Source of the DNA: Burkholderiales bacterium
Lineage (GTDB): Bacteria > Pseudomonadota > Gammaproteobacteria > Burkholderiales > WYBJ01
Length of the DNA: 64,000 nt
Direction of reading: 5' to 3'
NCBI GenBank assembly: GCA_022841915.1
Contig: JALHQN010000019.1
Location: 1 to 64,000 of the forward strand
Shown: positions 19,701 through 34,085 of the stretch, piece after piece
Numbering within the stretch: position 1 is the stretch's first letter
Layout of the letters: every line of letters starts with the position of its first letter
Program-made: the position numbers and the translations under genes
The notes under the pieces: generated by a model
Seen by the model: the letters and a program-made list of their open reading frames with translations, nothing else
Database searches by the model: none
Told to the model about the DNA's origin: nothing

Positions 19701-20148
19701 TTACCAATCCATTACGGACTAACTTCGGCCGAGCCGCCAATGGCAGCAATGGCCGACCAGTTGACGTGCATGCCAAGGCGCATGGGATAATCTTCCGGCC
19801 AAGATTGCAGCGACCCTGCGGTGTGCGCCCCTCGCACCTTGAGCTGAGATATTGGTGGGGCGACATGCCCACGGCGATAGCGGCTTAACGTGAATCACCG
19901 GTAGTTGTGGAGGGTCCTGATACCACTGGAAGCGCTCTCACTGGTCGGCCGTCGTTCCGTCTCTATGCGAGCCACCGCGTCGGAAGTTTTGATGCCTTCG
20001 GACTATTCGCGGGCCCCCCAAGGGCGTTAATCGATCGTTTCTTCGTGTAGATTGGTGGCCCATAAGCCGCGAACTTTGGTGCTGTGGCCAATAGTGTGTG
20101 ACGCTTTGCGCTAGGTGGCCCCCCCCGACCAGAAGCCGAGAAGGATCT
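19701..20148. other. Noncoding stretch before the helicase-PLD operon
   Basis: No credible gene. It probably contains the promoter for the operon starting at 20149; a run of eight C at 20120-20127 lies just upstream of the start. Confidence 0.4.
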
Positions 20149-21519
20149 GTGAGCGCCGATTGGTACTTTACTGCTCCTTGGGACCCAGTGTCGATCCGAC
20201 GAGGTGATGCGCTCGGTCTTCGCGGAGGGGCCGACTATTTCGCGGACCTGCTGGCGCCCGGGCTGAGCAATGGCGCCTCCGACGCGAGGTGGATTTCACT
20301 CCTCTCGTGGTGCCTGAAGTGGTCGCATATTGTGTGGACAAGCGCAGGCGGCCGCGACCTGGCTCGACGTGACGAACAGATCGCGCGGTACGCATGGCTT
20401 CGGCCCCTCGAGCTGCTTTGGGTAGACCGCACGCTGGAGTCGGGGCAGACCACGGGTCAACTACGTGGACGAAGAAGCGTCGAGCGCTGGCGCAATGCCG
20501 ACCGGCAGCTTCCCAACTTCGCGATGAGCCCGGACCAGTTTCGCCGTTACCGACAGGTCGGCAGTTACGGCGCATATCGCGTGATCCTGCGTAGCGTCCC
20601 TGGGCTGACGACAGGCGACGGGTGGACGCCCGCCAGCACCGCTCTCGCCCTCGCGGATCTCGTCAACGACAGCCTTCCGCGTGATGTACGACTCAGGCAA
20701 GGGCACTTCGAGAACGGCACGAAGTGGGGCCGCTGGAGCGGTGGCAACGAGGCGCGGTATTGGGTAGAGCGGGGGTGGTCAAGCGCTTGTGCGAGCGCGG
20801 GGGGAATCCTGCCCACGGCCGACGAGGCTGCGAGCAAACGGCTCCCTGAGCAAGAACGTCGCCTGCTGGAGTCCGCGCTGTTCAGTGCCGATTCAAGGCG
20901 TCGCATCACGGCCGAGGCCCTAGCCCGGGCGAAGGGGGCCAAATCGCATGCTGAGCTGTGCGATGCGCTGGCCAATTCGAGTGTGCTCTCGAAGGCGATC
21001 GATCCCGCGTCACTCGCGCCGCTTCCAGCCTTCTCCCGATTCGCCGATGCGGCGATGCATGCGATGCGGAGACTCTGGCACGAGATGAACAACGACGATA
21101 CGAATCAGGCACCCACCGTTGAAAAGCTGGCCCGATCGGCTGAACTGCAAACAAGCCTCGGCTTGGCTCGTGACGCGGGCGCGGCGTGGCTTCAGGCAGC
21201 AGGCAGGAGCACGTTCCCGCACGTCCACGTAATCTCGCGACTCGCTCAAGCAATGCGCAGCGCTAGGAGCCCCCTCAGCCAACTGCGAGCGCTGGCACGG
21301 CATCACCATGAGCATGGCGGAGGCCGACGTTGGTTCCATGAGCAGGCGGGCCGAATGGTTCCCCTCGCGGCGGATACGGGTATCGCTGCGAGCGACTACC
21401 GCTTCCGTCTGCGGTCGCTGAGTCGTCTGGCAGCCCAGTGCGGCGTCGCAAAAATGAACCATGTGCTCGAAGCGACTGGACGACACGAGCAAGATGACGA
21501 GGAAGGCGACATCCTGTGA
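20149..21519 (+). CDS. Unknown protein, first gene of a three-gene putative defence operon
   Basis: A 456-residue protein. GTG 20149 (VSADWYFTAPWDPVSIRRGD) is chosen for the AGAAGGATCT ribosome site; an upstream ATG at 20098 would add an unlike tail. It has a conserved-looking N-terminal block (LLAPGLSNGASDARWISLLS), a Trp/Arg-rich middle and a helical, His-rich end (ALARHHHEHGGGRRW). No signal, membrane span or nucleotide motif is seen. It may be the recognition or adaptor subunit, because its partners are a phosphodiesterase and a helicase. It overlaps the next gene by 4 bp (GTGA). I do not recognise the family. Confidence 0.75.
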   Translation: MSADWYFTAPWDPVSIRRGDALGLRGGADYFADLLAPGLSNGASDARWISLLSWCLKWSHIVWTSAGGRDLARRDEQIARYAWLRPLELLWVDRTLESGQTTGQLRGRRSVERWRNADRQLPNFAMSPDQFRRYRQVGSYGAYRVILRSVPGLTTGDGWTPASTALALADLVNDSLPRDVRLRQGHFENGTKWGRWSGGNEARYWVERGWSSACASAGGILPTADEAASKRLPEQERRLLESALFSADSRRRITAEALARAKGAKSHAELCDALANSSVLSKAIDPASLAPLPAFSRFADAAMHAMRRLWHEMNNDDTNQAPTVEKLARSAELQTSLGLARDAGAAWLQAAGRSTFPHVHVISRLAQAMRSARSPLSQLRALARHHHEHGGGRRWFHEQAGRMVPLAADTGIAASDYRFRLRSLSRLAAQCGVAKMNHVLEATGRHEQDDEEGDIL

Positions 21520-23309
21520 CCGACCCTCGTTGTAGCAATGTCCTTCCTACGCCCCCTCAAGGCGGCCGGCTTCTAGAGGCGTGGATGACGAGCTTCGAGC
21601 AGCCTGACGCCGGCTTATTGGTCGAGCACCTACTGCCGTCGCTCCTTGGCGTGGGCCACTCGCTTTCACAGGAGATTGCGGAGCGCTCGCTGTTCTTCGG
21701 CGAGCTGAGCACGACGCTCGAAACGTTGCACGGGCGGCTCACGGTTATCTCATCCCCGCCTCGTGAAGAACGAGAGTCGTCGCACTATCCGTGGCTATGG
21801 CGTTACGTGAGTCATTTCATTGTCGGCGCGCAGTCACGTGCTGTGCAGCACGCGAAACTCTGGGCCTTCCACTGGAAGGTCGGCGGGGAGGAGTTGATCG
21901 AGCTACACATCTCGTCGACCAACCTCACGTCCGCGGCATTCAAGGCCCAGTTGCAGGCGGGCTGGCGGCTGTTGCTGCCGCTGCAGCCACGCTCGAGCAT
22001 GAGCGCGCGTCGATCCTGGGGAGAGCTCGTGCCGTTTCTCGAGGCGCTCGGTGCCTCGGCAGGCGCGGTCGCGACGACGAGACTCGAGCGCCTCGTCATG
22101 CTGCTCAGCCGCGTCGTGTGCCCGGCGGGAGTCACTTTCATCACAGGCATTCCTGGAGGCAAGAGCGCGGCTCGTCAGCTCAGGCAGTTCGAGGTATCGG
22201 AGATTCATGTGCTGGCGCCGACGATTGGTGAGTGGAACGATCGAACGCTCTCGGCTTGGAGCAGGGACGTTGGCGTCGCCCTCGGCAAGATCCATCTCAA
22301 GTGGATTTCCGCCACGCACCCATGGGCAACGGGTGACGGGTGGGCACTCTCCACGAAAGCCAATGCGACGCTGGAGGCGAACGGCGTGCAGGTAGAGTGC
22401 CTTCCGAGCGATGCGCGCTTCACCGAGCAACATCGCGACGCCGATCCTCGTTGGAGCCACGCCAAGCTCTACCTGCTCCGAAGCCGACGAAAGCACCGAC
22501 TCCTTGTGACTTCGAAGAACTGGAGCCCCTCAGCGTGGGGCGCAGGAAAGACCTCGCCGAGAAACTTCGAACTCGGCGTCGTCTTCGAGTCGGGGTGGAC
22601 CTACCTCGAAGGAATCGGCGAGCCATTCAACCCACCCGATACGGTTCCCTTCTGCGTCGATCGTGTGGAGGAGGAACGCGCGTTCTCGCTCGAATGGGCG
22701 GAAGCCCAATGGGACGGCAAACGCATCGAACTGCGTGCGCGCAGCTCGAACGCTTCCATGGCGATCATGGCGACCGTCCGCTTCTCCGATGGAACCGAAG
22801 CAGCGTTATCGCTCGTCGGTGGCGCGGCCGCCATGCCGTGGAAGGATCCGGCGCGCACGCCGATCACTGCTCGGTTTGCGCAGGACAGCGAGACGCTGGA
22901 GGTCGACATCATCGACGTTCGGCCTCCAACTGAGTTCGCCAGGACGCCGCTTCCCGAGGTCGATCCCGCCATCGCAAAGGCGCTTCGCGAGGCCTTTCTG
23001 CTGCAGCGCTACGGCGGTCCGGCGGTCGATCTGGAGGCTATCCCCGGCTTGGGCGGCCTTTGCGAGTCAACCCGCGCGGGAGCGCCCCCTGCTGAGTATT
23101 CCGTTCAGGCGTGGATCGACGCGCGAACGGCGTTCAACGTGGTCGACCAGTGGCGAGCCGCGCTTGGAGAGGCGGTGGCCGAACCCATGCGCCGGGAGCG
23201 TGTGCTTATGGACGGCGAAGAGCTTCGCGCGCTTTACGCGCGTCGTGAGGGTGCCGGCGCCGGGCTCGTCGTCGAGGAGCTCGGGTGGCGTCTTGACGAG
23301 AAGTCATGA
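21516..23309 (+). CDS. Tdp1-like HKN phosphodiesterase (PLD superfamily)
   Basis: A 597-residue protein with GTG start 21516 inside the previous stop. Two half-sites are visible: H112-x-K114 in QHAKLWAF with Asn136 in HISSTNLTSAAF, and H315-x-K317 in SHAKLYLL with Asn335 in LVTSKNWSPSAWG, followed by NFELGVVFES. The Asp of the usual HKD motif is missing in both. This HKN arrangement and the S-x-N-x-S-x-x-AWG...-ELGV block are those of tyrosyl-DNA phosphodiesterase 1, which releases proteins covalently joined to DNA. The C-terminal 240 residues are of unknown type. In this operon it may be a nuclease or remove protein-DNA adducts. Confidence 0.82.
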   Translation: MTDPRCSNVLPTPPQGGRLLEAWMTSFEQPDAGLLVEHLLPSLLGVGHSLSQEIAERSLFFGELSTTLETLHGRLTVISSPPREERESSHYPWLWRYVSHFIVGAQSRAVQHAKLWAFHWKVGGEELIELHISSTNLTSAAFKAQLQAGWRLLLPLQPRSSMSARRSWGELVPFLEALGASAGAVATTRLERLVMLLSRVVCPAGVTFITGIPGGKSAARQLRQFEVSEIHVLAPTIGEWNDRTLSAWSRDVGVALGKIHLKWISATHPWATGDGWALSTKANATLEANGVQVECLPSDARFTEQHRDADPRWSHAKLYLLRSRRKHRLLVTSKNWSPSAWGAGKTSPRNFELGVVFESGWTYLEGIGEPFNPPDTVPFCVDRVEEERAFSLEWAEAQWDGKRIELRARSSNASMAIMATVRFSDGTEAALSLVGGAAAMPWKDPARTPITARFAQDSETLEVDIIDVRPPTEFARTPLPEVDPAIAKALREAFLLQRYGGPAVDLEAIPGLGGLCESTRAGAPPAEYSVQAWIDARTAFNVVDQWRAALGEAVAEPMRRERVLMDGEELRALYARREGAGAGLVVEELGWRLDEKS

Positions 23310-25387
23310 TGAATGACTTTCAGATAGATGCCCGGAGATGGCGCTTCCTCGATAACCCGGCTCGGTACATCGAGGGAAAAAAATCCGACCTTAAGGTCGA
23401 GCCACTCGCGAGGCAGTTCAAGACAGCCAAGGAGATCCTCCGTCGCTTCTCGGATGGACGTGGTGTTTTGCTGGCCGACGATGTTGGGCTCGGGAAGACG
23501 ACCGTCGGTGTGCTCGTCGCGTGGGTCGTCGCCTGCCAGGATAAGCGCGTGCGCATCTACGCGCCCAACGACGTCCTGCGTCGGCGCTGGGCCGAGGAGC
23601 TCGAGCGCCATGTGCCGCTGCTCGAGCGGCTCGGCGCAAGATGCGACCGCATCAAGCAAGGCGACGTTGGCAAATTGAACGCCGGGCGTATCCAGGTGGC
23701 GACTCATCACACCCTCGTCAAAAGCCACGGCAACAACGAGCAACGGACCTCGTGCCACCTCATGATCATCGACGAGGCGCACCGTGCGAAAGGAGACGGG
23801 AGTGCGTTCAACGATGCGCTCCGAACCCTCGGCGAACGCGCGAAGCGTAAGCTAATCCTCACCGCGACGCCGTTCAGTATCAGGCTCGCCGAGCTGGAGC
23901 AATTGCTTCGGTTCGTCGGTGCAACTGAACTCGAGGCGGTGGGTCGATACGCAAACGAATTGAGGCGGCTCTATAGCCTTGGAGACGGCCACGACATTTC
24001 CGCCGAATCGAAGCGCCTTGTGGGGGCGGCGAAGGCAGCAATCGAAGAGTTGCGCCCCTACCTCATTCGTCACGGGATCGATGAACTGTCCGCGGTGGAG
24101 AGGAGGCATTTTGGAGCCATCGGTTCCGATCCTTGGGAGATCGCAACAGAGCCGGCATCGCATGACGAAATTCGGCTGCTGCTGCGGATGGATCGACTGC
24201 TCCAACTCGTACCTGAGCGAAAGGGGGAACGCCGCAACGATCCTCGCTTCCACATTGGCTGGCGGCATGTGGGTACTGAGCTTGATCGGGCCGCGAAGCG
24301 GTCTGCCGTCGGAGCGGATCGGGCAGCGTTGCGTCACATCGCGGCAGCGAAGAAGGCGCTCGGCGCTCGAAGCGGCAAGGTTCACCCGAAGATCGCGGCT
24401 GTCAGCGCCGCTATTCGCCCGCTGCTCGATGCTGGCGAAAAGGTCCTTGTGTTCTGTCATCACAGGGCGACCGCCGGCGAACTGCTCAGCGCCCTCGAGC
24501 GCTCGCTGAAAGTACCCAGCGCGCTGCGTTCCGGGACTCAAGAGAAGGCGTGGCGAGAAGCCTGGTGGTCCGCGCTACCCGATGCCTCGATTCAGCCGGA
24601 TGAGCCGCTTCTCGAGCCGATCATCAATTGGCTCTGCTCGCCTGGGATTCGATGGCAGATCGGTAGCTGGCTGGAACAACCATCCGCCTGCGCGAAGGCT
24701 CTGGCTGACCAGTTCAAGAGGACAAGGCCGCGTAATGCGGGCACGCGCGTTCCGACGATCCTCGAAGCGGCAAGAGCGCTCGTGGGCGTGCTTCTCGATG
24801 CGCAGTCGACATCGACACGCGCGCTCCTGAGGAATATCGCGAAGGGGACGCGGACGTTCGGCGGCACGAGTTCTCACTTCCCTGGACGACTCGACGAAGG
24901 CTTTCGGGTCATGGGCTCCTGGAGCCATGACGGAAATGGCGATCCGCCCAAGACGCTCTACACGGGCAAGCCTGACATTGTGCTCGCAGTTTTCAACAGT
25001 CCGTTCGGACCTGATGTGCTGGTGACCACCGACCACCTGAGTGAGGGTGTCGATCTGCACCGGTGCTGCCGTTACCTCATCCACTACGAGCTTGACCCCA
25101 GCCCCGTCCGAACGCTGCAAAGAAACGGCCGTGTGCGCCGCGTCGGATCGTGGGCGGCGCTCACCGAGCGGCCGATCTGCTACGCGTATCCGACATTCGC
25201 CGGTACCCGAGACGAGAAAGCTGTCCTCATCATGAGGCAGCGCATCAACGCCTTCGGGCTGCTCCTCGGTGGTGTGCCGTCTTTCGACGACGACCCGACC
25301 GACAGCAATGAGAGCTTCGCAGAAGCCGTACTTCGCGATGCTGGCAAGACGCTCAAGTCGCTTAACATGGCATTAGGGTGTGCCTGA
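23306..25387 (+). CDS. SF2 helicase/translocase, third gene of the operon
   Basis: A 693-residue protein whose ATG overlaps the preceding stop (ATGA). Motif I is LLADDVGLGKTTVG (about 55-68), motif II MIIDEAH (153-159) and motif III ILTATPF (184-190). The second RecA domain includes KVLVFCHHRATAGELLSAL, VLVTTDHLSEGVDLHRC and motif VI LQRNGRVRRVGSW. The DDVGLGKT form is that of SNF2/RapA-like translocases. An insert of roughly 200 residues separates the RecA domains. It probably moves on DNA and loads or drives the HKN phosphodiesterase. The operon ends here. Confidence 0.88.
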   Translation: MMNDFQIDARRWRFLDNPARYIEGKKSDLKVEPLARQFKTAKEILRRFSDGRGVLLADDVGLGKTTVGVLVAWVVACQDKRVRIYAPNDVLRRRWAEELERHVPLLERLGARCDRIKQGDVGKLNAGRIQVATHHTLVKSHGNNEQRTSCHLMIIDEAHRAKGDGSAFNDALRTLGERAKRKLILTATPFSIRLAELEQLLRFVGATELEAVGRYANELRRLYSLGDGHDISAESKRLVGAAKAAIEELRPYLIRHGIDELSAVERRHFGAIGSDPWEIATEPASHDEIRLLLRMDRLLQLVPERKGERRNDPRFHIGWRHVGTELDRAAKRSAVGADRAALRHIAAAKKALGARSGKVHPKIAAVSAAIRPLLDAGEKVLVFCHHRATAGELLSALERSLKVPSALRSGTQEKAWREAWWSALPDASIQPDEPLLEPIINWLCSPGIRWQIGSWLEQPSACAKALADQFKRTRPRNAGTRVPTILEAARALVGVLLDAQSTSTRALLRNIAKGTRTFGGTSSHFPGRLDEGFRVMGSWSHDGNGDPPKTLYTGKPDIVLAVFNSPFGPDVLVTTDHLSEGVDLHRCCRYLIHYELDPSPVRTLQRNGRVRRVGSWAALTERPICYAYPTFAGTRDEKAVLIMRQRINAFGLLLGGVPSFDDDPTDSNESFAEAVLRDAGKTLKSLNMALGCA

Positions 25388-25933
25388 ACGGCTATCCCGA
25401 GTCCGTACATGTCTTACAAGGGTAGGCTCATCTATCGGTGCGACAAAGTCGGCATGGCAATGCATGCTTTAGAACGACACTGTCGTGCGCGGTTCGTCAT
25501 CGGAGTGCGATGTTGCTCGCGAGGAGTTCATCGAAACTGGTTGCGACGGGGCAGCCGTTTCGCATTGGTTTGGTCAGAGCATCCTCGTTCGACGCCATGG
25601 CATTGCCGGACAACGGGCGCGTCATGATCTCAGAAACAATTCAGAGTTCTTCGAACGAGAGCGCCGTTTCCGTTCGGATTGCCAGTCTTGGCGTTGACAG
25701 CTGGCTGGGGAAATGATCGGTGTTTGATCGAGCCGTCAGACGCATGAAGCATCCTATATGATCAGAACTCACTGCATTTTCCAGCCGATGTCGTCGCTGC
25801 GATCGTACGACAGCACGTGCACAGTTTGGCGAACGGAGCACCGCCGTGTCTTGCACAGTCGGGCTAGTACTGGCGGATTGGAATGCATGCGCCGAATTGA
25901 ATGCATTTGGCAATACAACGAAGGACGATTCGC
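25388..25933. other. Intergenic region before the restriction operon
   Basis: No supported gene. A short frame (LVATGQPFRIGLVRASSFDA, 25540-25620) has a faint M48-peptidase-like look but no HExxH motif. The AT-rich sequence at 25740-25790 may hold the promoter for the 14-kb operon. Confidence 0.4.
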
Positions 25934-27430
25934 TTGACCGAGCAACGTATTTCTCTCGCTCAGCTTGAAAGCCACCTCTGGGAATCCGCCAACATCCTGC
26001 GCGGCCCGGTGGATGCGGCTGACTTCAAGACCTACATCTTCCCGTTGCTGTTCTTCAAGCGTATCTGTGATGTCTGGGACGAGGAGTACCAAGAGATCGT
26101 CGACGAGACCGGCGACGAGCAACTGGCTTGGTTTCCGGAGTCGCATCGCTTCCAGATTCCAGAAGACTGTCACTGGAAAGACGTTCGCACCAAGGCCGGC
26201 AATGTCGGTACGGCCCTTCAGCGTGCGATGCGGGAGATTGAGAAAGCCAACCCCGACACCCTGTACGGCGTGTTCGGCGATGCTCAGTGGTCGAACAAGG
26301 ATCGGCTGTCTGATGCCTTGCTCAAGGACCTGATCGAACACTTCTCTAAACTGCCGTTCGGCAACAAGAACGTCAACTCGGATCTGCTTGGCGACGCCTA
26401 CGAATACTTGATCAAGAAGTTCGCCGACGCCACCAACAAGAAGGCCGGGGAGTTCTACACCCCGCGTAGCGTCGTGCGGCTGATGATCGACATGCTCGAT
26501 CCCAAAGAAGCCGAGACCATCTACGACCCGGCCTGCGGTACCGGCGGCATGTTGCTGGCCGCCGTGCAGCACGTGAAGGAACAGCATGGCGACGTGAAGC
26601 GGCTGTGGGGCAAGCTGTACGGACAAGAGAAGAACCTCACCACTTCATCCATCGCGCGGATGAACCTGTTCCTTCACGGCATCGAAGACTTTCAGGTGGT
26701 GCGCGGCGACACCCTGCGTAACCCAGCCTTCTTCGAGGTCGACCGACTGGCCACATTCGACTGCGTGATCGCCAACCCCCCGTTCTCGCTGGAAAAATGG
26801 GGCGAGGACCTGTGGCTAAACGATCCATTCGGCCGCAACTTTGCCGGCCTGCCGCCCTCATCCAGCGGTGACTTCGCCTGGGTGCAGCACATGGTCAAAT
26901 CCATGGCCGACGTCAGCGGCCGGATGGCCGTGGTGCTGCCCCAGGGCGCCTTGTTCCGAAAAGGTGTGGAAGGCAACATCCGTCAAAAGCTATTAGAAAT
27001 GGATCTGGTCGAGGCCGTGATCGGGTTGGCGCCCAACCTTTTCTACGGCACCGGCCTGGCCGCATGCATCCTGGTCCTGCGCAAGCGCAAGCCGGCCAAA
27101 CACAAGAAGCAGGTGCTGATCGCCGATGCTTCGCGCCTGTTCCGCCGCGGACGCGCGCAGAACTATCTGGAGCCCGAGCACGCCGCCGAGATCCTCGGCT
27201 GGTATCGCGGCTTTGCCGATGTACAGGACACGGCCCGGGTGGTCAGCCGCGACGATATCAAGGCCGAGGACTGGACGCTGAACATTTCGCGCTATGTCCT
27301 GCCGCCGCTGCAGGAAGACATCCTGCCGCTGCCTGTTGCCATCGCGGCATTCAAGGAGGCGCTGACCCGCTGCCGCGAGGCTGAAGAGCGGCTCACGCAG
27401 GTCATGAACGAAGGTGGGTGGTTGAGATGA
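25934..27430 (+). CDS. hsdM: Type I restriction-modification methyltransferase subunit, copy 1
   Basis: The TTG start at 25934 (LTEQRISLAQLESHLWES) is favoured by AAGGA at 21-25 of the same line, 8 nt upstream; ATG 25901 is in frame but lacks such a site. The protein has 498 residues. It has an N-terminal HsdM helical domain (FPLLFFKRICDVWDEEY), SAM motif I YDPACGTGGM (about residue 196) and catalytic motif IV IANPPF (about 279), as in N6-adenine methylases. A second, clearly paralogous HsdM lies two genes downstream, but only one HsdS exists in the operon. The stop overlaps the next ATG by 4 bp. Confidence 0.93.
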   Translation: MTEQRISLAQLESHLWESANILRGPVDAADFKTYIFPLLFFKRICDVWDEEYQEIVDETGDEQLAWFPESHRFQIPEDCHWKDVRTKAGNVGTALQRAMREIEKANPDTLYGVFGDAQWSNKDRLSDALLKDLIEHFSKLPFGNKNVNSDLLGDAYEYLIKKFADATNKKAGEFYTPRSVVRLMIDMLDPKEAETIYDPACGTGGMLLAAVQHVKEQHGDVKRLWGKLYGQEKNLTTSSIARMNLFLHGIEDFQVVRGDTLRNPAFFEVDRLATFDCVIANPPFSLEKWGEDLWLNDPFGRNFAGLPPSSSGDFAWVQHMVKSMADVSGRMAVVLPQGALFRKGVEGNIRQKLLEMDLVEAVIGLAPNLFYGTGLAACILVLRKRKPAKHKKQVLIADASRLFRRGRAQNYLEPEHAAEILGWYRGFADVQDTARVVSRDDIKAEDWTLNISRYVLPPLQEDILPLPVAIAAFKEALTRCREAEERLTQVMNEGGWLR

Positions 27431-27780
27431 GGAAACAGGTATCGCGCCTCACGCCCGACGTGATCAGTGCCATCGTCGAGCGCTACGAGACCGATCGGCT
27501 CGTTCTTTCAACCCCCTATGCCGATGGAAGCACGGAGCACTTGAAGGTAAGGCTGCAGGACGGGTTGATCAATCAAATGGAGAACGGCGACGCCATGGCA
27601 GCGCGCTACGCGATCTGGGCCAATACCGTGCGCGACAACATCATTGCCGGCATGAACGCCCTCAAGGCCGGCGAGCCGACCGAAGGCTACCGACACCTGA
27701 TTCGCGCGGCCAACAGCTTATCTGCTTTCTCGGACGCGCAAGCCTATCTGGACCCCCTCAACATTGGGAAGCGCTCATGA
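27427..27780 (+). CDS. Unknown 117-residue protein between two hsdM genes
   Basis: The protein starts MRKQVSRLTPDVISAIVERY. It is joined to both neighbours by ATGA overlaps, so it is certainly co-translated. The sequence is helical and polar (DGLINQMENGDAMAARY, DNIIAGMNALKAGEPTEGY), without nucleotide-binding, DNA-binding or toxin motifs that I recognise. Its length and coupling suggest a small regulator or stabiliser of a methyltransferase complex, or an anti-restriction/immunity factor. Confidence 0.8.
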   Translation: MRKQVSRLTPDVISAIVERYETDRLVLSTPYADGSTEHLKVRLQDGLINQMENGDAMAARYAIWANTVRDNIIAGMNALKAGEPTEGYRHLIRAANSLSAFSDAQAYLDPLNIGKRS

Positions 27781-29288
27781 GCCGCATCACCCAACAAGAA
27801 CTCGAGAGCTACCTCTGGGGCGCCGCCGTGCTGCTTCGCGGCTTGATCGACGCGGGCGACTACAAGCAGTTCATCTTTCCGCTGCTGTTCTACAAGCGCG
27901 TCTCGGATGTCTGGGACGAGGAGTACCAAGCGGCGCTGGTCAACTCAGGCGGCGACCTCTCCTACGCGCAGTTCGCCGAGAACCACCGCTTCCAGATCCC
28001 CGAGGGCGCGCACTGGAATGACGTGCGCCAGACCCCGAAGAACGTCGGCGCGGCCATACAGAAGGCCATGCGCGCCATCGAGACTGCCAACCCGGATCTG
28101 CTCGACGGCATTTTCGGCGACGCCCCCTGGACCAACCGCGAGCGCCTGCCGGACGAAACGCTGAAGAACCTGATCGAGCACTTCTCGACCCAAACGCTCT
28201 CTGTGGCCAACGTACCCGAGGACGAGCTGGGCAACGCCTACGAGTACCTGATCAAGAAATTCGCCGACGACTCCGGCCACACGGCAGCCGAGTTCTATAC
28301 CAACCGCACCGTCGTCCACCTGATGACGCAGCTTCTGGCGCCGCAGGCCGGTGAGTCGATCTACGACCCCACCTGCGGCACCGGCGGTATGCTGATCTCG
28401 GCGTTGGACGAGGTGAAGCGCACGGGCGGCGAGTACCGCACGCTCAAGCTGTTCGGGCAGGAGCGCAACCTCATCACCTCGTCCATCGCGCGCATGAACC
28501 TGTTCCTGCACGGTGTGGAGGACTTCGAGATCATCCGCGGCGATACCCTGGCCGACCCCAAGCACATCGCGGGCGACCGTCTGCGCCAGTTCGACGTGAT
28601 CCTGGCCAACCCGCCGTACTCCATCAAGCAGTGGAACCGCGAGGCCTGGAGCAGTGACAAGTGGGGGCGCAATTCGCTGGGCACTCCGCCGCAGGGCCGC
28701 GCCGACTATGCGTTCCAGCAGCACATCCTGACCAGCCTCACCGCCAAGGGACGCTGCGCCGTGCTCTGGCCGCATGGCGTGCTGTTCCGCAACGAGGAAC
28801 AGGCCATGCGCGCCAAGATGGTCGAGCAAGACTGGGTGGAGGCCGTCATCGGCCTGGGGCCCAACCTTTTCTACAACTCCCCGATGGAGTCGTGCATCGT
28901 CATCTGCAACCGTAAGAAGACGGCTGCACGCAAGGGCAAGGTGATCTTCATCGACGCGGTAAACGAGGTCACCCGCGAGCGGGCACGGAGCTTCCTCACA
29001 CCCGCGCACCAGCAGCGCATCTTGGCCGCCTACAAGACGTTTGCGAATGTGCCCGGTTTCGCCAAGGTCGCGACGCTGGCCGAAATTGGCGCCAATGCAG
29101 CGAATCTGTCGCTCCCGCTGTACGTGAAGCGCATCGCTGCAGCCGTCGCAATCGACAGCAATGGCGATGCGGTATCGCTGCGTTCTGCATGGGATCAATG
29201 GCAAACCGATGGCCGCGCGTTCTGGCACCAGATGGACACGTTGGTGGAAACGCTGGATGGGCTTTCCATGGCCGAGAATAAGCAATGA
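27777..29288 (+). CDS. hsdM: Type I restriction-modification methyltransferase subunit, copy 2
   Basis: A 503-residue protein starting MSRITQQELESYLWGAAVLL. It shares the HsdM layout of copy 1 (FPLLFYKRVSDVWDEEYQ), SAM motif I YDPTCGTGGM (about residue 195) and motif IV LANPPY (about 276), so both copies look catalytically competent. It differs widely outside the motifs, so this is an old duplication or two lineages brought together. It is coupled by ATGA to the unknown small gene before and the OLD ATPase after. Which copy partners the single HsdS is not evident from sequence. Confidence 0.93.
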   Translation: MSRITQQELESYLWGAAVLLRGLIDAGDYKQFIFPLLFYKRVSDVWDEEYQAALVNSGGDLSYAQFAENHRFQIPEGAHWNDVRQTPKNVGAAIQKAMRAIETANPDLLDGIFGDAPWTNRERLPDETLKNLIEHFSTQTLSVANVPEDELGNAYEYLIKKFADDSGHTAAEFYTNRTVVHLMTQLLAPQAGESIYDPTCGTGGMLISALDEVKRTGGEYRTLKLFGQERNLITSSIARMNLFLHGVEDFEIIRGDTLADPKHIAGDRLRQFDVILANPPYSIKQWNREAWSSDKWGRNSLGTPPQGRADYAFQQHILTSLTAKGRCAVLWPHGVLFRNEEQAMRAKMVEQDWVEAVIGLGPNLFYNSPMESCIVICNRKKTAARKGKVIFIDAVNEVTRERARSFLTPAHQQRILAAYKTFANVPGFAKVATLAEIGANAANLSLPLYVKRIAAAVAIDSNGDAVSLRSAWDQWQTDGRAFWHQMDTLVETLDGLSMAENKQ

Positions 29289-31189
29289 AGCTACAAGCGA
29301 TTCGGCTATCGAGCTTTCAGTCTTTCGGTGCGGTGCCGATCGAAGTCGCGCTTGAGGACATCATCTACCTCATCGGGCCCAATGGATCCGGAAAAACAAC
29401 AGTGCTTCAAGCCTTGTGTAGGCTCTTTGCCTTCGATCCTTCGTTACGCCGAATCCTGCGCTCGGACTTTCATGTCCCATTTAATGAGGTAGCCCCGCCG
29501 GCTGAGCGTCAGCTATGGATCGAAGCCGACTTTTTGTTTCCGGAACTTGACGACGTCGAAGACAACAGCACGGTAGCACCCCATTTCGGCCACATGCGCC
29601 TTGACGAAGTCGATGGCACCCCGCGCGTGCGTTTCCGCCTCGCCGCCACCATGGGCTTGGATGGTGACATCGAGGAAAGTTTGGTCTATGTGCTGGACAT
29701 CAATGCTGATGGCTCGCCATTGACCACAGCTAAAGTCCCCCGATCTGAACGTAACCATATCCACGTCCACTATCTGCCCGCACGCCGTGATCCTGCTGAT
29801 CACATTGCCTACGGGGCCAATGCACTGCTGGGGCGCATGCTGCGTGCGGTGAACTGGGATGCAGAGCGAACTGTCATCAAGGGTCTGACCGATAGAATAA
29901 GCGACAGCCTGGCGGCAAATCCGTCAATCAATGCGTTCAGCACACGTTTGAAAACAGCATGGAGCGCTTTGCACAAGGGCAGCTTCTTTGCCGACCCAAA
30001 GCTCACTTTTGTAGCGTCCGAGATCGAGTCTTTGTTGCGCCACATGTCGGTGTCTTTCACACCAGGCCATGACGAGCAGCTGGTCGATTTCTCGCGACTG
30101 AGCGACGGCCAGAAGTCAATGCTTTATCTGTCGCTTGTGCTGTCCTCGCAGGCCATCGGCCGCGCTGTTCTGGCTGAAGAAGACAAGTCCCTCGATGCAG
30201 ACAAATTGCGTCCGCCCGTGTTTACGGTGATAGCGGTCGAAGAGCCAGAAAACAGCCTATCGCCACACTACCTTGGGCGGATCGTCAGTGCCCTCAACGG
30301 CATGACGGGCGACGGCGACGCACAAGCACTGATTGCTACCCACGCGCCGTCGATGCTGCGGCGCGTTGCCCCGGAACGGATCCGCTATCTGCGGCTGACC
30401 CAGGAGCGAACATCGCGCGTCACGCTTATCCACCTACCAGACGCGACTGATGAAGCGCACAAATTCGTTAGAGAAGCCGTACAGGCCTTTCCGGAAGTGT
30501 ATTTCTCGCGCCTTGTGGTTCTCGGCGAAGGGGACAGCGAGGAAATCGTGTTGCCACGTCTTCTTCAAGCGAAAGGAGCGCCGGTTGACGAGTCAGCGGT
30601 CACGATAGCGCCCTTGGGCGGTCGCCATGTCAATCATATTTGGCGCTTATTGTCTGCCCTACAGATTCCGTATCTAACACTTCTTGATCTGGATGTCGGA
30701 CGGTACCAAGGCGGATGGGGACGAATCAAGTACGTCAACGACCAGTTAGCTGCCTATGAGCCGAGTAAGGTTCTACCTGAAGATCATGGCATTCCTAGTT
30801 GGAACAATGCAACTCAGAAAGTACGTGCCTTTGGGCACTACAACAGTCTTCTTGAGGAGCGCGATGTGTATTTCTCGTCCCCTATGGATCTGGATTTTTC
30901 TATGCTTCTCGCCTTTCCGAATGCCTATGGCGTATTAGAGGAAGATGCCGACGAGTCGACGACCAAGGCCGTCCTTGGCAAAAGCCATCACGACGCTGGC
31001 CAATACACCGAAGACGAACAGCAACTGTTCAGCACTTACCACCGTAGCTTCAAGCTGAGCAGCAAGCCGGCTGCCCACATTGAGGCTCTCGCCAAACTTA
31101 GCGACGCAGATCTGATCGCTAACATGCCCGAAACACTCGCCCGGTTGGCGGATGCCGTCATCGCCAAGCTCGCGGAGTTGCCGGAGTGA
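29285..31189 (+). CDS. OLD-family ATPase with TOPRIM nuclease domain (GajA-like)
   Basis: A 634-residue protein. Walker A IGPNGSGKT lies at about 30-38. An ABC-type signature LSDGQKSMLYLSL (about 271) and Walker B IAVEEPENSLSP (about 317) follow. The TOPRIM domain has VVLGEGDSEE (about 413-420) and LTLLDLDVG (about 460), giving the E and DxD metal residues. This is the structure of OLD nucleases and of GajA, the DNA-nicking subunit of Gabija anti-phage defence. The next gene is a UvrD-like helicase, the GajB position. It overlaps both neighbours by 4 bp, which is unusual because Gabija normally stands alone. Confidence 0.88.
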   Translation: MKLQAIRLSSFQSFGAVPIEVALEDIIYLIGPNGSGKTTVLQALCRLFAFDPSLRRILRSDFHVPFNEVAPPAERQLWIEADFLFPELDDVEDNSTVAPHFGHMRLDEVDGTPRVRFRLAATMGLDGDIEESLVYVLDINADGSPLTTAKVPRSERNHIHVHYLPARRDPADHIAYGANALLGRMLRAVNWDAERTVIKGLTDRISDSLAANPSINAFSTRLKTAWSALHKGSFFADPKLTFVASEIESLLRHMSVSFTPGHDEQLVDFSRLSDGQKSMLYLSLVLSSQAIGRAVLAEEDKSLDADKLRPPVFTVIAVEEPENSLSPHYLGRIVSALNGMTGDGDAQALIATHAPSMLRRVAPERIRYLRLTQERTSRVTLIHLPDATDEAHKFVREAVQAFPEVYFSRLVVLGEGDSEEIVLPRLLQAKGAPVDESAVTIAPLGGRHVNHIWRLLSALQIPYLTLLDLDVGRYQGGWGRIKYVNDQLAAYEPSKVLPEDHGIPSWNNATQKVRAFGHYNSLLEERDVYFSSPMDLDFSMLLAFPNAYGVLEEDADESTTKAVLGKSHHDAGQYTEDEQQLFSTYHRSFKLSSKPAAHIEALAKLSDADLIANMPETLARLADAVIAKLAELPE

Positions 31190-32862
31190 TAGCAGTCGAC
31201 GCCTGGAAGCCGGCAGATGAGCTAACGCTTGAACCCAACGCCCTTCTTGCGGCCAAGGAGCAGGTGCGCAGTCTTGCGCTCACAGCCGGTCCGGGTGCGG
31301 GAAAGACTGAGGTGCTTGCACAGCGGGCAGACTTCCTACTGCGTACGAGTACCTGTCGCTACCCCAAACGGATCTTGGCAATCGCGTTCAAAGTCGATGC
31401 CAGCAGCAACCTGAAGGAGCGAGTCAAGCGGCGTTGCGGTTCTGAGCTTGCGGCGCGGTTCGACAGTTACACCTTCCATGCATTCGCGAAACGAATCATC
31501 GACCGGTTCCGCCCAATTCTGACCGGGCGCGAGGTCCTGGATGTAGGCTACAAAATCGTAGAACGAAAAGTGGGGCAGTCCCACCAAGAAATCGAGTTTT
31601 CCGACCTGGTTCCACTGGCCATCACGATCCTGCAGAAGTCCGCCATGGCGCGAAACGCCATTCGCCAAACCTACAGCGACGTCTTCCTTGACGAATTCCA
31701 GGACTGCACGAACCTGCAGTACGACCTACTCAAGCTGGCCTTTCAAGGTACGAGCATTCGCTTGACCGCCGTAGGTGACACCAAACAAAGGATCATGGGT
31801 TGGGCAGGGGCCATGGACGGGATCTTCCAAGCTTTCGTTGCCGACTTTACAGCCACACCTCTCAACATGTACCGCAACTTTCGCTCAAAGCCGCGGCTGT
31901 TGCGTCTGCAGAACGAGATCATTCGCAATCTTGATCCCCCATCTGTCATGCCCGATGAGGAACTTGCGGGCGAGGAAGGCGAGATATTTGCGTGGCGCTT
32001 CGAGGACGGTCGCAAGGAGGGGGACTACCTCGCAGACTTAATTGCAGGCTGGATAAAGAGCGAGCAACTGCCTCCTTCGGAAATCGCGGTCCTGATTCGC
32101 AATCAGCTCGACCTGTACGCCGATCATCTGATGGCGGCCCTGGAGGAGCGTGGAATACCCTTCCGTAACGAACAACAGATGCAAGACATCACGGCCGAGT
32201 CGGCTGCCCGCTTGATTGTCGACTATCTCTCCTGCCTCTATGGTCAGCGACAGCCCAAGGCATGGATTCGGCTCATGAACCAGCTCATCCCGTTTGCCGA
32301 TGAGGAGATTCAGTCGAATGCCCGCAAGGACCTTGATCGGCTCGTGAAGCAGCAGCGAAAAGAGATAGGAATTGCCGAGCTGATCGACGAACCCTTCACA
32401 GGTTGGTGGGATCGTGTCCGTGTATTTCTGAGGCAAGTCGGTGTTGAAACCCTGGTGTCACTTTCTCCAGATTACGAATCGCATGCTCGGCTAAGAGATG
32501 TGATTCGTGAAACAAAAGTGCGAATTGAGGAGTTGCTGAAGCGGGAGTCGGATTTACCCAAAGCCCTCATGCGGTTCTCAGATGACCAAGCAGTGCGGAT
32601 ACTGACTATTCATAAGAGCAAGGGCCTTGAGTTTGACTCGGTCATCATCTTGGCAGTTGAAAACGAAATCTTCTTTGGCAATCAGGATGAGAACCGCTGC
32701 GCTTACTTCGTAGGAGTATCGCGCGCCAAGAGACGACTTGTCCTAACCCATGCTGACCAACGGGAACGCCCAGAGGGGAGCACGAAACGTTGGGATGTGC
32801 AACGCACGGCTCAAACTGAGTATTTTGGCTATGCAGTGCCGTTCGTAAGGCCAGAACAATGA
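31186..32862 (+). CDS. UvrD/Rep-family SF1 helicase (GajB-like)
   Basis: A 558-residue protein with GTG start 31186 (GTGA overlap). Motif I is TAGPGAGKTEV (about 33-43) and motif II FLDEFQDC (about 166-173). AVGDTKQRIMGWAG is motif III, and RILTIHKSKGLEFDSVII and YFVGVSRAKRRLVLT are the late motifs. Domain order and size fit GajB, which senses DNA ends and helps activate the GajA nuclease. With the preceding OLD gene it gives the two-gene Gabija composition. Stand-alone OLD plus UvrD-like pairs also occur outside defined Gabija, so the name is an inference. Confidence 0.88.
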   Translation: MIAVDAWKPADELTLEPNALLAAKEQVRSLALTAGPGAGKTEVLAQRADFLLRTSTCRYPKRILAIAFKVDASSNLKERVKRRCGSELAARFDSYTFHAFAKRIIDRFRPILTGREVLDVGYKIVERKVGQSHQEIEFSDLVPLAITILQKSAMARNAIRQTYSDVFLDEFQDCTNLQYDLLKLAFQGTSIRLTAVGDTKQRIMGWAGAMDGIFQAFVADFTATPLNMYRNFRSKPRLLRLQNEIIRNLDPPSVMPDEELAGEEGEIFAWRFEDGRKEGDYLADLIAGWIKSEQLPPSEIAVLIRNQLDLYADHLMAALEERGIPFRNEQQMQDITAESAARLIVDYLSCLYGQRQPKAWIRLMNQLIPFADEEIQSNARKDLDRLVKQQRKEIGIAELIDEPFTGWWDRVRVFLRQVGVETLVSLSPDYESHARLRDVIRETKVRIEELLKRESDLPKALMRFSDDQAVRILTIHKSKGLEFDSVIILAVENEIFFGNQDENRCAYFVGVSRAKRRLVLTHADQRERPEGSTKRWDVQRTAQTEYFGYAVPFVRPEQ

Positions 32863-34085
32863 ACAAAAAGACATTGAAACCCCGCTGGTGCCAGGTGAAG
32901 TTCGGCGACGTGGTGCAGCTCTCGAAGGCGCGCAGCCAGCATCCACTGGCAGATGGCATTGAGCGCTACGTCGGGCTGGAACACCTGGAGCCGGGCGATC
33001 TTCGCATACGCAGTTGGGGCAGCGTGGCCGAAGGCGTGACCTTCACCAGCGTCTTCAAGCCCGGTCAAGTGCTATTCGGCAAGCGCCGCGCTTACCAGCG
33101 CAAGGTGGCCGTGGCGGACTTCTCCGGTGTCTGCTCCGGCGACATCTACGTGCTAGAGACAAAGGATGCAAAGGTTTTGCTGCCAGAGTTGCTGCCGTTC
33201 ATCTGCCAGACCGACGCCTTCTTCGATCACGCGGTGGGAACGTCGGCAGGCTCGCTAAGCCCACGCACCAATTGGACGAGCTTGGCGGATTTCCAGTTTT
33301 CGCTGCCGTGCATTGAAGACCAGGCCAACTTGGTTGCGTTGCTGGCCGCATCGTTGAGTGCGGTCCATGCCGCGGAAATGATCAGTCATCGTGTCGGTGA
33401 GCTTAGAAAAAGTGTTATTGCCAACCATCTAGGCAATGGGTCGGGCGCTTCTGGCGTGGCCACGCCGTGGGGAACCATCCCCTCATGCTGGAGATATATA
33501 CCCATAGGCGATTTGACACTGTCAAGCGCCTACGGTCCTCGATTTCCCTCCACGCTCTACGCGGATAAGGGAAGCGCAAGGACCATCCGAACAACGGACT
33601 TCTGCGGCAACGACGACATCAACCTTGAGACCGCGCCGTTTGCGAGGCTGGACGACAGCATGGTCCAAGAACATAAGCTGCTTAGCGGCGACTTCTTGCT
33701 TTCTCGTTCAGGCGAGTACGCAGGCAAGACACGCGTATTCGTGCCCTCAGTGGAAGGCCGATTCATTCCGGCCGCGTTCTTGATTAGATACAGGCTCTCT
33801 CTGTCGGAGATTCGGCCAAAGTACTTGCAGTACATCTGCTCTTCGCCAATCGGGCAGTCAGTTCTGTCGACACTTGTGCAAGGAAGCGCTCAACCGAACA
33901 TCGCCGGCTCAGCTTTCTTGGCCCTCAAGGTCCCGGTACCCCCGATCGAAGAGCAAGACCAAATCATTGCCATCGTGGATGACTTGTCAAAGGCAGACAG
34001 AGCTGCGAATGATCGACTAAAGAAGTCTCGCGCGTTCATGAGCGCCGTGCTGACGCGAAAACTGGAGGCGCAAGATGTTCAATGA
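32859..34085 (+). CDS. hsdS: Type I restriction-modification specificity subunit
   Basis: A 408-residue protein with ATGA overlap to the helicase. Two target-recognition domains are seen: the first from KFGDVVQLSKARS to about residue 175, the second from IPIGDLTLSSAYGPRF. Each is followed by a conserved helical spacer (EDQANLVALLAASLSAV and IEEQDQIIAIVDDLSKA). This is the normal HsdS layout that sets the two half-sites of the recognition sequence and binds two HsdM. The gene ends 11 bp into hsdR. Confidence 0.92.
   Translation: MNKKTLKPRWCQVKFGDVVQLSKARSQHPLADGIERYVGLEHLEPGDLRIRSWGSVAEGVTFTSVFKPGQVLFGKRRAYQRKVAVADFSGVCSGDIYVLETKDAKVLLPELLPFICQTDAFFDHAVGTSAGSLSPRTNWTSLADFQFSLPCIEDQANLVALLAASLSAVHAAEMISHRVGELRKSVIANHLGNGSGASGVATPWGTIPSCWRYIPIGDLTLSSAYGPRFPSTLYADKGSARTIRTTDFCGNDDINLETAPFARLDDSMVQEHKLLSGDFLLSRSGEYAGKTRVFVPSVEGRFIPAAFLIRYRLSLSEIRPKYLQYICSSPIGQSVLSTLVQGSAQPNIAGSAFLALKVPVPPIEEQDQIIAIVDDLSKADRAANDRLKKSRAFMSAVLTRKLEAQDVQ

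What the first reader, a model, noticed from the sequence alone, without database searches (positions are those of the whole stretch)
20149..25387. Three-gene system: unknown protein, Tdp1-like HKN phosphodiesterase, SF2 helicase
The genes overlap by GTGA and ATGA and occupy the cargo region beside known defence genes. The middle protein has two H-x-K...N half-sites and the S-x-N...AWG...ELGV block of tyrosyl-DNA phosphodiesterase 1 instead of HKD. Tdp1-type enzymes release proteins linked to DNA through tyrosine. A helicase-driven version in a defence island might attack DNA with covalently attached proteins, such as rolling-circle Rep intermediates, relaxase-bound strands or phage terminal proteins. 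Helicase plus PLD occurs in DISARM and, as I recall, in Azaca, but no methylase or DUF1998 gene is present here and the first protein is unfamiliar.
Basis: partly seen in the sequence, partly recalled or inferred. Interest (0 to 1): 0.78.

Follow-up and report, generated by a model that had tools for sequence, protein, structure and literature searches.

The report
Azaca-like defence triplet with Tdp1-type enzyme
Three overlapping genes on a mobile element look like a distant cousin of the Azaca antiphage system, but with a partner enzyme that resembles the eukaryotic enzyme that frees proteins stuck to DNA ends.

Summary
A (20149-21519), B (21516-23309) and C (23306-25387) overlap as described, and A-B-C recurs in 12 other contigs, whole in 5. 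B's H112-x-K114...N136, H315-x-K317...N335 and E352 are invariant in 11 B proteins. The window's B passes Pfam's Tdp1 cut-off; all 11 B proteins match that family at E<=0.01, 0 of 15 Azaca ZacB proteins do.

Gene order, B and, more weakly, A point to a remote relative of Azaca (ZacA-ZacB-ZacC) and of PADLOC's PDC-M27; C belongs to the same helicase group, but not to ZacC in particular. No Azaca or PDC-M27 model is met at member level, so I file it as Azaca-like, not Azaca. HKN without Asp occurs in ZacB, SauUSI and NgoAVII too, so it does not by itself mean phosphotyrosyl chemistry; the Tdp1 match of B is the distinctive part.

Most likely it is an anti-phage or anti-plasmid system in which the ATPase delivers DNA to B for phosphohistidine-type cleavage (inferred). 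Attack on protein-linked DNA ends is the bold, unexcluded reading.

The parts
20138..20145 (+). GAGAAGGA, likely ribosome-binding site of gene A
   Evidence: read directly, 3 bases before the GTG at 20149
20149..21519 (+). Gene A, 456 aa, ZacA-like partner protein with no family-model hit
   Evidence: no hit in PADLOC, Pfam, NCBIfam; 9 further members aligned, 67-77% identical to it; remote ZacA relationship
20206..20319 (+). A residues 20-57: D-x-L-G...L-A-P-G-x-S...D-A-R-W block shared in outline with ZacA
   Evidence: the pattern was written after seeing the sequences; it fits 23 of 29 A-type proteins (misses L005, L009, L055 and 3 of 3 M27A), and among 479 ORFs of 300 aa or more it occurs in 30, all A-position genes
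21516..23309 (+). Gene B, 597 aa, Tdp1-type HKN phosphodiesterase (residues about 1-372) plus a beta-sandwich (about 389-470) and a helical C-terminus
   Evidence: PF06087 E 8.5e-9, 35.2 bits against a cut-off of 22; ZacB 1e-7; VIA-align Z 11.6 to Tdp1 on a low-confidence model
21849..21857 (+). First half-site H112-A-K114
   Evidence: H112 and K114 invariant in 11 of 11
21921..21956 (+). N136 of the first half-site, and Q147 at N+11
   Evidence: both invariant in 11 of 11; Q absent at N+11 in all 14 of 15 ZacB proteins that could be read
22458..22466 (+). Second half-site H315-A-K317
   Evidence: H315 and K317 invariant in 11 of 11
22518..22571 (+). N335 ... AWG ... N-F-E352-L-G-V block of the second half-site
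   Evidence: aligned residue by residue to yeast Tdp1
23306..25387 (+). Gene C, 693 aa, SF2 (SNF2-type) ATPase
   Evidence: PF00176 1.4e-19, PF00271 5e-9; PADLOC PDC-M27C 1.3e-23 and ZacC 4.1e-20; NCBIfam DpdE 2.7e-26, far below its cut-off
23495..23497 (+). Walker A lysine K64 (GLGKTT)
   Evidence: invariant in 9 of 9
23771..23782 (+). DEAH box, residues 156-159
   Evidence: invariant in 9 of 9
25118..25141 (+). Motif VI Q605-R-N-G-R-V-R-R612
   Evidence: QRNGRxRR in 7 of 7 C proteins that reach this region; aligns with QREGRVHR of ZacC

Best explanation
The triplet is a rare, mobile, Azaca-like immune system. C is a DNA-translocating SF2 ATPase. B is a two-lobed phosphodiesterase with one composite HKN active site per chain, which attacks a DNA phosphodiester through a phosphohistidine intermediate. 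A is a partner protein related to ZacA that probably couples recognition of foreign or abnormal DNA to the B-C engine. During phage or plasmid entry C would load on the invader's DNA, move along it and feed it to B, which destroys it or blocks its ends. Shown here: the conserved operon, the conserved catalytic residues, the Tdp1 family match of B, the profile relation of B to ZacB, and that C is an SNF2-type ATPase of the group that holds ZacC. Supported but weaker: the relation of A to ZacA. Inferred: a physical A-B-C complex, DNA as the target, and the defence function.
For: Same order as Azaca: of 13 plasmid loci opened round a DUF6361 (ZacA) gene, 10 are annotated DUF6361, then a PLD or hypothetical gene, then a helicase (L063 with one tiny gene between); in L062 the third gene is only 'hypothetical', L052 has no annotation and in L059 DUF6361 is broken. 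B against ZacB: hhalign E 4.5e-13 over residues 63-380. C against ZacC: 2.8e-13 over 63 columns. A against ZacA: score 32.8, above all 200 column permutations of ZacA (maximum 26.5). Over 2743 ORFs the ZacA profile places 9 distinct window-type A genes (E 0.071-1.9) after the true ZacA genes and one unrelated ORF; with one bridging protein added, 10 of 12 distinct window-type A genes reach E 5.8e-4 to 0.18. PF06087 matches 11 of 11 B proteins; Tdp1 fold Z 10.6-11.6 in the first 28 rows against 8.3 for the next PLD enzyme. Defence setting in the window. In Dyella (L005) the triplet follows an AddAB-like nuclease-helicase pair whose proteins are 68-71% identical to those before ZacABC in Rhizobium and Niveispirillum. 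Of 100 relatives searched only the window's own genome has B; 3 of the 99 others are of the same genus, as expected of a mobile cassette.
Against: A has no family-model hit, and the ZacA profile found nothing in the window's own genome at E<=10. hhalign of A against the unrelated B scored 30.8, close to the A-ZacA score. In one search the Dyella A gene ranked lower (E 11) and L006 and L008 were not among the rows shown. C is about 350 residues shorter than ZacC, and other helicase models score as well: DpdE 91.8 bits and DrmD 76.4 against ZacC 70, so C alone does not point to Azaca. The AddAB-like pair is in 2 of the 6 window-type loci with 5 kb or more upstream of A and not in the window, and it also stands beside BREX, TerB-ATPase-helicase and ubiquitin-like gene sets. 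No activity is shown. Both structure models are poor (mean pLDDT 50 and 54), and Foldseek alone gave no match of B at E<=0.001.
Confidence: 0.6

Rival explanations
1. B keeps true Tdp1 chemistry. It releases proteins, or single blocked nucleotides, from DNA ends, and C strips the DNA so that B can reach such ends. The system would attack elements that pass through protein-linked DNA, such as integrase or recombinase 3'-links, or less directly 5'-linked Rep and relaxase intermediates.
For: PF06087 above its cut-off in the window protein and matched at E<=0.01 in 11 of 11 B proteins; Tdp1 is the best fold by a clear margin in the second look; Q147 and W150 at N+11 and N+14 in 11 of 11, as in human Tdp1 by recall. 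[quoted passage not shown]
Against: The conserved His that precedes the nucleophile in Tdp1 (PMC6895789, passages) is Gln111 here. ZacB, in the same position, matches PLD nucleases best among solved structures. Freeing DNA ends would as easily help as harm an invader.
Confidence: 0.2
2. The triplet is a DNA end-processing or repair module that serves the mobile element itself, for example clearing stalled recombinase or relaxase complexes during transfer, not an immune system.
For: The window copy lies on a conjugative element. An AddAB-like pair in two loci, and a place near recC in Zoogloea (Pfam), fit DNA processing.
Against: Defence genes are the neighbours in the window, and L011 carries a TOTE-conflict primase-helicase gene. 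The nearest named gene sets, Azaca and PDC-M27, are listed in PADLOC as known or candidate defence systems.
Confidence: 0.13
3. The resemblance of A to ZacA is chance, and the triplet is an independent assembly of a PLD-type enzyme and an SF2 ATPase around an unrelated third protein.
For: No A family model matches; an unrelated pair reaches nearly the same hhalign score; C is no closer to ZacC than to other helicase models.
Against: Permutation test 0 of 200, profile ranking, the iterated search and the shared N-terminal block agree, and A holds the ZacA position.
Confidence: 0.07

Closest known systems
Azaca (ZacA-ZacB-ZacC; antiphage system, recalled from Millman et al. 2022, which is not held)
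   Same: A-B-C order; B with two HxK...N half-sites in one chain; SF2 ATPase last; often on mobile DNA; profile similarity of B, weaker similarity of A, general similarity of C
   Different: No DUF6361 hit for A; B matches PF06087 and carries Q at N+11, which no ZacB protein tested does; C is 693 aa against about 1,040; no Azaca model is met at member level
PDC-M27 (PADLOC candidate, three genes)
   Same: A-B-C order in the three loci examined (L073, L074, L075); PLD-type B; M27C is the best PADLOC model for C (81 bits)
   Different: A and B of the window give no PDC-M27 hit; true M27C scores 1256 bits
Tdp1 (PF06087), eukaryotic tyrosyl-DNA phosphodiesterase 1
   Same: Two HKN half-sites in one chain, AWG...N-[FY]-E-x-G-V block, best fold match in the second look
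   Different: The His before the nucleophile is missing (Gln111); extra beta-sandwich and helical C-terminus; joined to an ATPase and a third gene
SauUSI and CglI/NgoAVII restriction enzymes
   Same: PLD-superfamily nuclease working with an SF2 ATPase; HxK...SxN...E pattern
   Different: One half-site per chain, the active site forming by dimerisation (PMC7913695 and PMC4267653, passages; a model for CglI); CglI/NgoAVII add a methyltransferase; no A protein
DISARM (DrmC + DrmD)
   Same: PLD protein with SNF2-type helicase; weak DrmC and DrmD hits
   Different: No DrmB or DUF1998 hit and no dedicated methylase among the 13 genes scanned

Membership tests
Azaca | Three-gene order A, PLD-type B, helicase C | tested here: met
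   for the triplet; for Azaca
Azaca | ZacA / DUF6361 family protein | tested here: not met
   no PADLOC, Pfam or NCBIfam hit; only remote profile similarity
Azaca | ZacB at member level | tested here: not met
   29 bits against 391 and 556 for two true ZacB proteins
Azaca | ZacC at member level | tested here: not met
   70 bits against 1136 for a true ZacC
Azaca | Antiphage activity | not testable with these tools
   needs an experiment
Tdp1 (PF06087) | Family model above Pfam's cut-off | tested here: met
   35.2 bits against a cut-off of 22 for the window's B; E<=0.01 in 11 of 11 B proteins
Tdp1 (PF06087) | Two HxK...N half-sites in one chain | tested here: met
Tdp1 (PF06087) | Tdp1 fold | tested here: inconclusive
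   best row Z 11.6, rmsd 4.8, 262 residues aligned, but the model has mean pLDDT 54 and Foldseek alone ranked other PLD enzymes first, with no E<=0.001
Tdp1 (PF06087) | Conserved His directly before the nucleophilic His (conserved in Tdp1; not needed by the Pfam model) | tested here: not met
   Gln111, invariant in 11 of 11
Tdp1 (PF06087) | Hydrolysis of 3'-phosphotyrosyl DNA | not testable with these tools
   needs an assay
PDC-M27 | M27A, M27B and M27C at member level | tested here: not met
   A and B no hit, C 81 bits against 1256
DISARM | DrmA/DrmB (DUF1998) core with DrmC | tested here: not met
   13 genes: only weak DrmC and cross-helicase hits (DrmD, DrmA); genes upstream of A were not scanned for it

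The most novel reading that the evidence does not exclude
A bacterial immune system built around a true Tdp1: an ATPase-driven machine that finds invading DNA by its protein-linked or blocked ends, such as integrase, recombinase, Rep or relaxase intermediates, and resolves or destroys those ends. It would be a Tdp1 put to work in immunity instead of repair, and one branch of a wider A-B-C superfamily that also holds Azaca and PDC-M27.
Probability: 0.18. Interest if true: 0.87.

Novelty: new variant of a known kind. Interest (0 to 1): 0.6.

Why it matters
The mechanism of Azaca is unknown to me, and none of the listings or passages I saw describes it (most subscription papers are not held). A relative whose B protein matches a biochemically understood enzyme gives a direct way in: the catalytic residues, the covalent phosphohistidine intermediate and the substrate tests are all known from Tdp1. 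It also suggests that ZacA and this A protein, and perhaps M27A, are one family, and that 'third protein + HKN phosphodiesterase + SF2 ATPase' is a recurring design. [quoted passage not shown]

Tried and rejected
Plasmids and phages gave no relative of B, and viral contigs none of B or A. An A-profile search over 398 genomes of the phylum found only the window itself; at most 4 candidates a genome were scored there, so it is not sensitive. The structure model of A was too poor for a fold search. A PDB search with residues 88-228 of B gave nothing, so the first half-site has no residue-level alignment to Tdp1. The best PDB hit of the B profile, a TAL-effector repeat structure (2.9e-6), was taken as a repeat artefact and dropped. 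Considered and rejected: DISARM, a single fused PLD-helicase (genes are separate), and the idea that HKN alone proves Tdp1 function (ZacB, SauUSI and NgoAVII share it). I first took the AddAB-like pair as evidence for Azaca in particular. Of 21 plasmid records with 65% or more identity to its nuclease (H41-H61), at least 10 have a ZacA gene 3.4-3.5 kb away by the coordinates (which lists 40 of 45 records). Seven records chosen among the others (four at 65% or more, L065-L068; three below, L069-L071) stand beside quite different gene sets, so I treat the pair as a general companion of defence genes. L047, a gene elsewhere in the window's genome that the ZacB model touched weakly, looks like a membrane-associated PLD by its sequence and was left. 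My by-eye match of A to M27A was not supported by hhalign (11.7); M27A proteins follow the window-type A proteins in one iterated search and are absent from the second.

Papers: PMC10952713, PMC12839542, PMC12458937, PMC12278908, PMC11405833, PMC6895789, PMC3874153, PMC7913695 and PMC4267653 were seen as passages found by term; all others only as search listings. Millman et al. 2022 (Azaca) is recalled.

Full report
What is there. The window holds three overlapping genes on the + strand: A at 20149-21519 (456 aa, GTG start behind GAGAAGGA), B at 21516-23309 (597 aa) and C at 23306-25387 (693 aa). A scan of genome contigs with B found 29 pattern matches, of which 13 encode a relative, at 12 distinct loci. 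By their titles the carriers are Polyangiaceae, Archangium and Archangiaceae, Acetobacteraceae, Dyella solisilvae, Zoogloea and less well placed Proteobacteria and Myxococcota. A stands upstream of B in 11 of the 12, and C or a piece of it follows in 10 of the 12; L011 and L012 end before C. Every readable A/B junction overlaps (12 of 12, the window included), and every readable B/C junction overlaps or abuts (10 of 10, the window included). Full-length A, B and C are in the window and 5 of the 12 loci; the rest are cut by contig ends or look decayed. The triplet is rare: among 100 relatives of the window's genome only that genome itself has B.

Protein B. The half-sites H112-x-K114...N136 and H315-x-K317...N335, with E352, are invariant in all 11 B proteins aligned. 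The window's B passes Pfam's cut-off for tyrosyl-DNA phosphodiesterase (35.2 bits against 22), and 11 of 11 B proteins, the window's included, match that family at E<=0.01. Of 15 ZacB proteins none does. Against solved structures the B profile finds yeast and human Tdp1 at E 0.001 to 0.014, below one repeat artefact at 2.9e-6, while a ZacB profile finds SauUSI (0.00046), NgoVII (0.034) and, weakly, BfiI (0.86). The AlphaFold model of B is poor (mean pLDDT 54). Foldseek alone gave no match at E<=0.001, with phosphatidylserine synthase, NgoAVII and BfiI near the top. The second look by VIA-align put Tdp1 in the first 28 rows (Z 10.6-11.6; best row rmsd 4.8 over 262 residues) and the next PLD enzyme at Z 8.3; that tool notes that a best Z of 7 to 8 is common without a true match. 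B also has Gln at N+11 and Trp at N+14 of the first half-site in 11 of 11, where none of the 14 readable ZacB proteins (of 15) has Gln at N+11; that these match human Tdp1 is recalled. One feature conserved in Tdp1 is missing: the His before the nucleophile (PMC6895789, passages) is Gln111.

HKN is not a Tdp1 signature by itself. ZacB carries HxK...N in the second half in all 15 and in the first half in 90% or more (the L057 gene as annotated starts behind it), with an N-x-E block. The alignments to SauUSI and NgoVII show the same HxK...SxN...E pattern. Papers describe SauUSI and CglI/NgoAVII as PLD nucleases working with an SF2 ATPase, the active site being formed by two chains (PMC7913695, PMC4267653, passages). 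What sets B apart is the Tdp1 family match, with two half-sites in one chain.

Relation to Azaca. PADLOC gives weak ZacB (1e-7) and ZacC (4e-20) hits, and PDC-M27C 1e-23. True Azaca loci (L044-L046) have DUF6361 (ZacA), a PLD protein and a helicase in the same order; of 13 plasmid loci opened round a DUF6361 gene, 10 are annotated so, the other three being unannotated, broken in DUF6361, or with a third gene called hypothetical. Profile comparison gives E 4.5e-13 for B with ZacB along residues 63-380; the permutation control for B did not run, and unrelated pairs gave E 0.0055 or worse. C with ZacC gives 2.8e-13 over 63 columns of the helicase core, but C with M27C gives 2.2e-11, and the NCBIfam models DpdE (91.8 bits) and DrmD (76.4) score above ZacC's 70. 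C therefore belongs to this group of helicases and does not single out Azaca.

Protein A. It has no hit in PADLOC, Pfam, NCBIfam or the PDB. hhalign with 14 ZacA proteins scores 32.8 (E 0.0018), while 200 column permutations reach at most 26.5. A caution: A against the unrelated B scores 30.8. A separate test: over 2743 ORFs of all loci then in hand, the ZacA profile ranks nine distinct window-type A genes (E 0.071-1.9) next after true ZacA genes and one other ORF; the Dyella gene comes lower (E 11), and L006 and L008, which lack their N-terminus, are not in the rows shown. The A profile ranks a ZacA gene (L056, E 0.0048) first after its own family, then B proteins, ZacA genes and others mixed. 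Adding one bridging protein (L079, 6692-8377, which stands before a PLD-type gene and hits ZacA at E 5.1e-4 among 39 ORFs, about 0.04 for the larger set) brings 10 of the 12 distinct window-type A genes to E 5.8e-4 to 0.18, ahead of everything else outside ZacA and the bridge itself. Adding L077's A as well brings the best to 3.6e-5 and the window's to 0.0089, with one unrelated ORF (0.038) above the two weakest. The ZacA profile alone reported nothing in the window's genome. I read this as probable, not proven, homology.

Wider family. PDC-M27, a PADLOC candidate, has the same A-B-C order in the three loci seen.

Setting. Downstream lie two HsdM genes, then GajA and GajB, then HsdS and HsdR, then an AAA_5 gene. 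TraG, TraH, TraC, TrbI, TraI_2 and a TraD/TraG-type gene mark a conjugative element. In Dyella (L005) an AddAB-like PD-(D/E)XK nuclease and UvrD helicase end directly before A; their relatives in Azaca loci L052 and L053 are 68-71% identical, and L003 and L062 carry more distant copies. Of the 6 window-type loci with 5 kb or more upstream of A, 2 have the pair (L003, L005); the window has none. The pair also stands beside other defence-like sets, so it supports a defence setting more than Azaca in particular. L003 and L005 have phage-type integrases, and L011 a TOTE-conflict gene.

How it may work (inferred). C loads on DNA and moves; B, with one composite active site, forms a phosphohistidine bond with the DNA and releases it; A links recognition to cleavage. 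In Tdp1 His263 is the nucleophile and His493 the general acid-base (PMC11405833, PMC6895789, passages). Whether B cuts plain DNA or only blocked ends decides between the best explanation and the main rival. Tdp1's reported substrates include 3'- and also 5'-phosphotyrosyl links.

Print check. The searches for Azaca, ZacA-C, DUF6361 and PDC-M27, and for tyrosyl-DNA phosphodiesterase with defence terms, listed no paper that by title or abstract start describes a Tdp1-type defence system. One search matched 1,175 papers and showed 25, none of which holds the Tdp1 term; the single paper is a review of modification-dependent restriction. Subscription papers and most preprints are outside this library.

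Verdict. Observation confirmed; interpretation partly supported; a new, Tdp1-type variant of an Azaca-like design.

Noticed in passing
L005:2524-8627, L052, L053, L062, L003; plasmid loci L065-L071: An AddAB-like nuclease-helicase pair (PD-(D/E)XK + UvrD) recurs beside Azaca, the window-type triplet, BREX, TerB-ATPase-helicase sets and ubiquitin-like sets, as if it were a general helper of defence operons.
   Followed up: partly
25901-37056: A Gabija pair (GajA 29285-31189, GajB 31186-32862) is nested between the methylase genes and the specificity and restriction genes of a type I restriction set with two HsdM genes.
   Followed up: no
L003:5469-6446, L013:12558-13628, L073:11813-13291: An ADP-ribosylglycohydrolase gene (PF03747) lies near two window-type loci and near a PDC-M27 locus; L013 and L073 also have a WYL-domain gene there.
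   Followed up: partly
   Followed up: partly
L079:6692-10857: An A-like gene and a PLD-type B gene that overlap by 4 bases, with no C-type helicase found in the 17 kb read; the A-like protein bridges ZacA and the window-type A.
   Followed up: partly
L009:8634-13896: In Zoogloea the triplet sits upstream of recC (Pfam), with genes that look like sbcD and sbcC, by reading only, on its other side.
   Followed up: no
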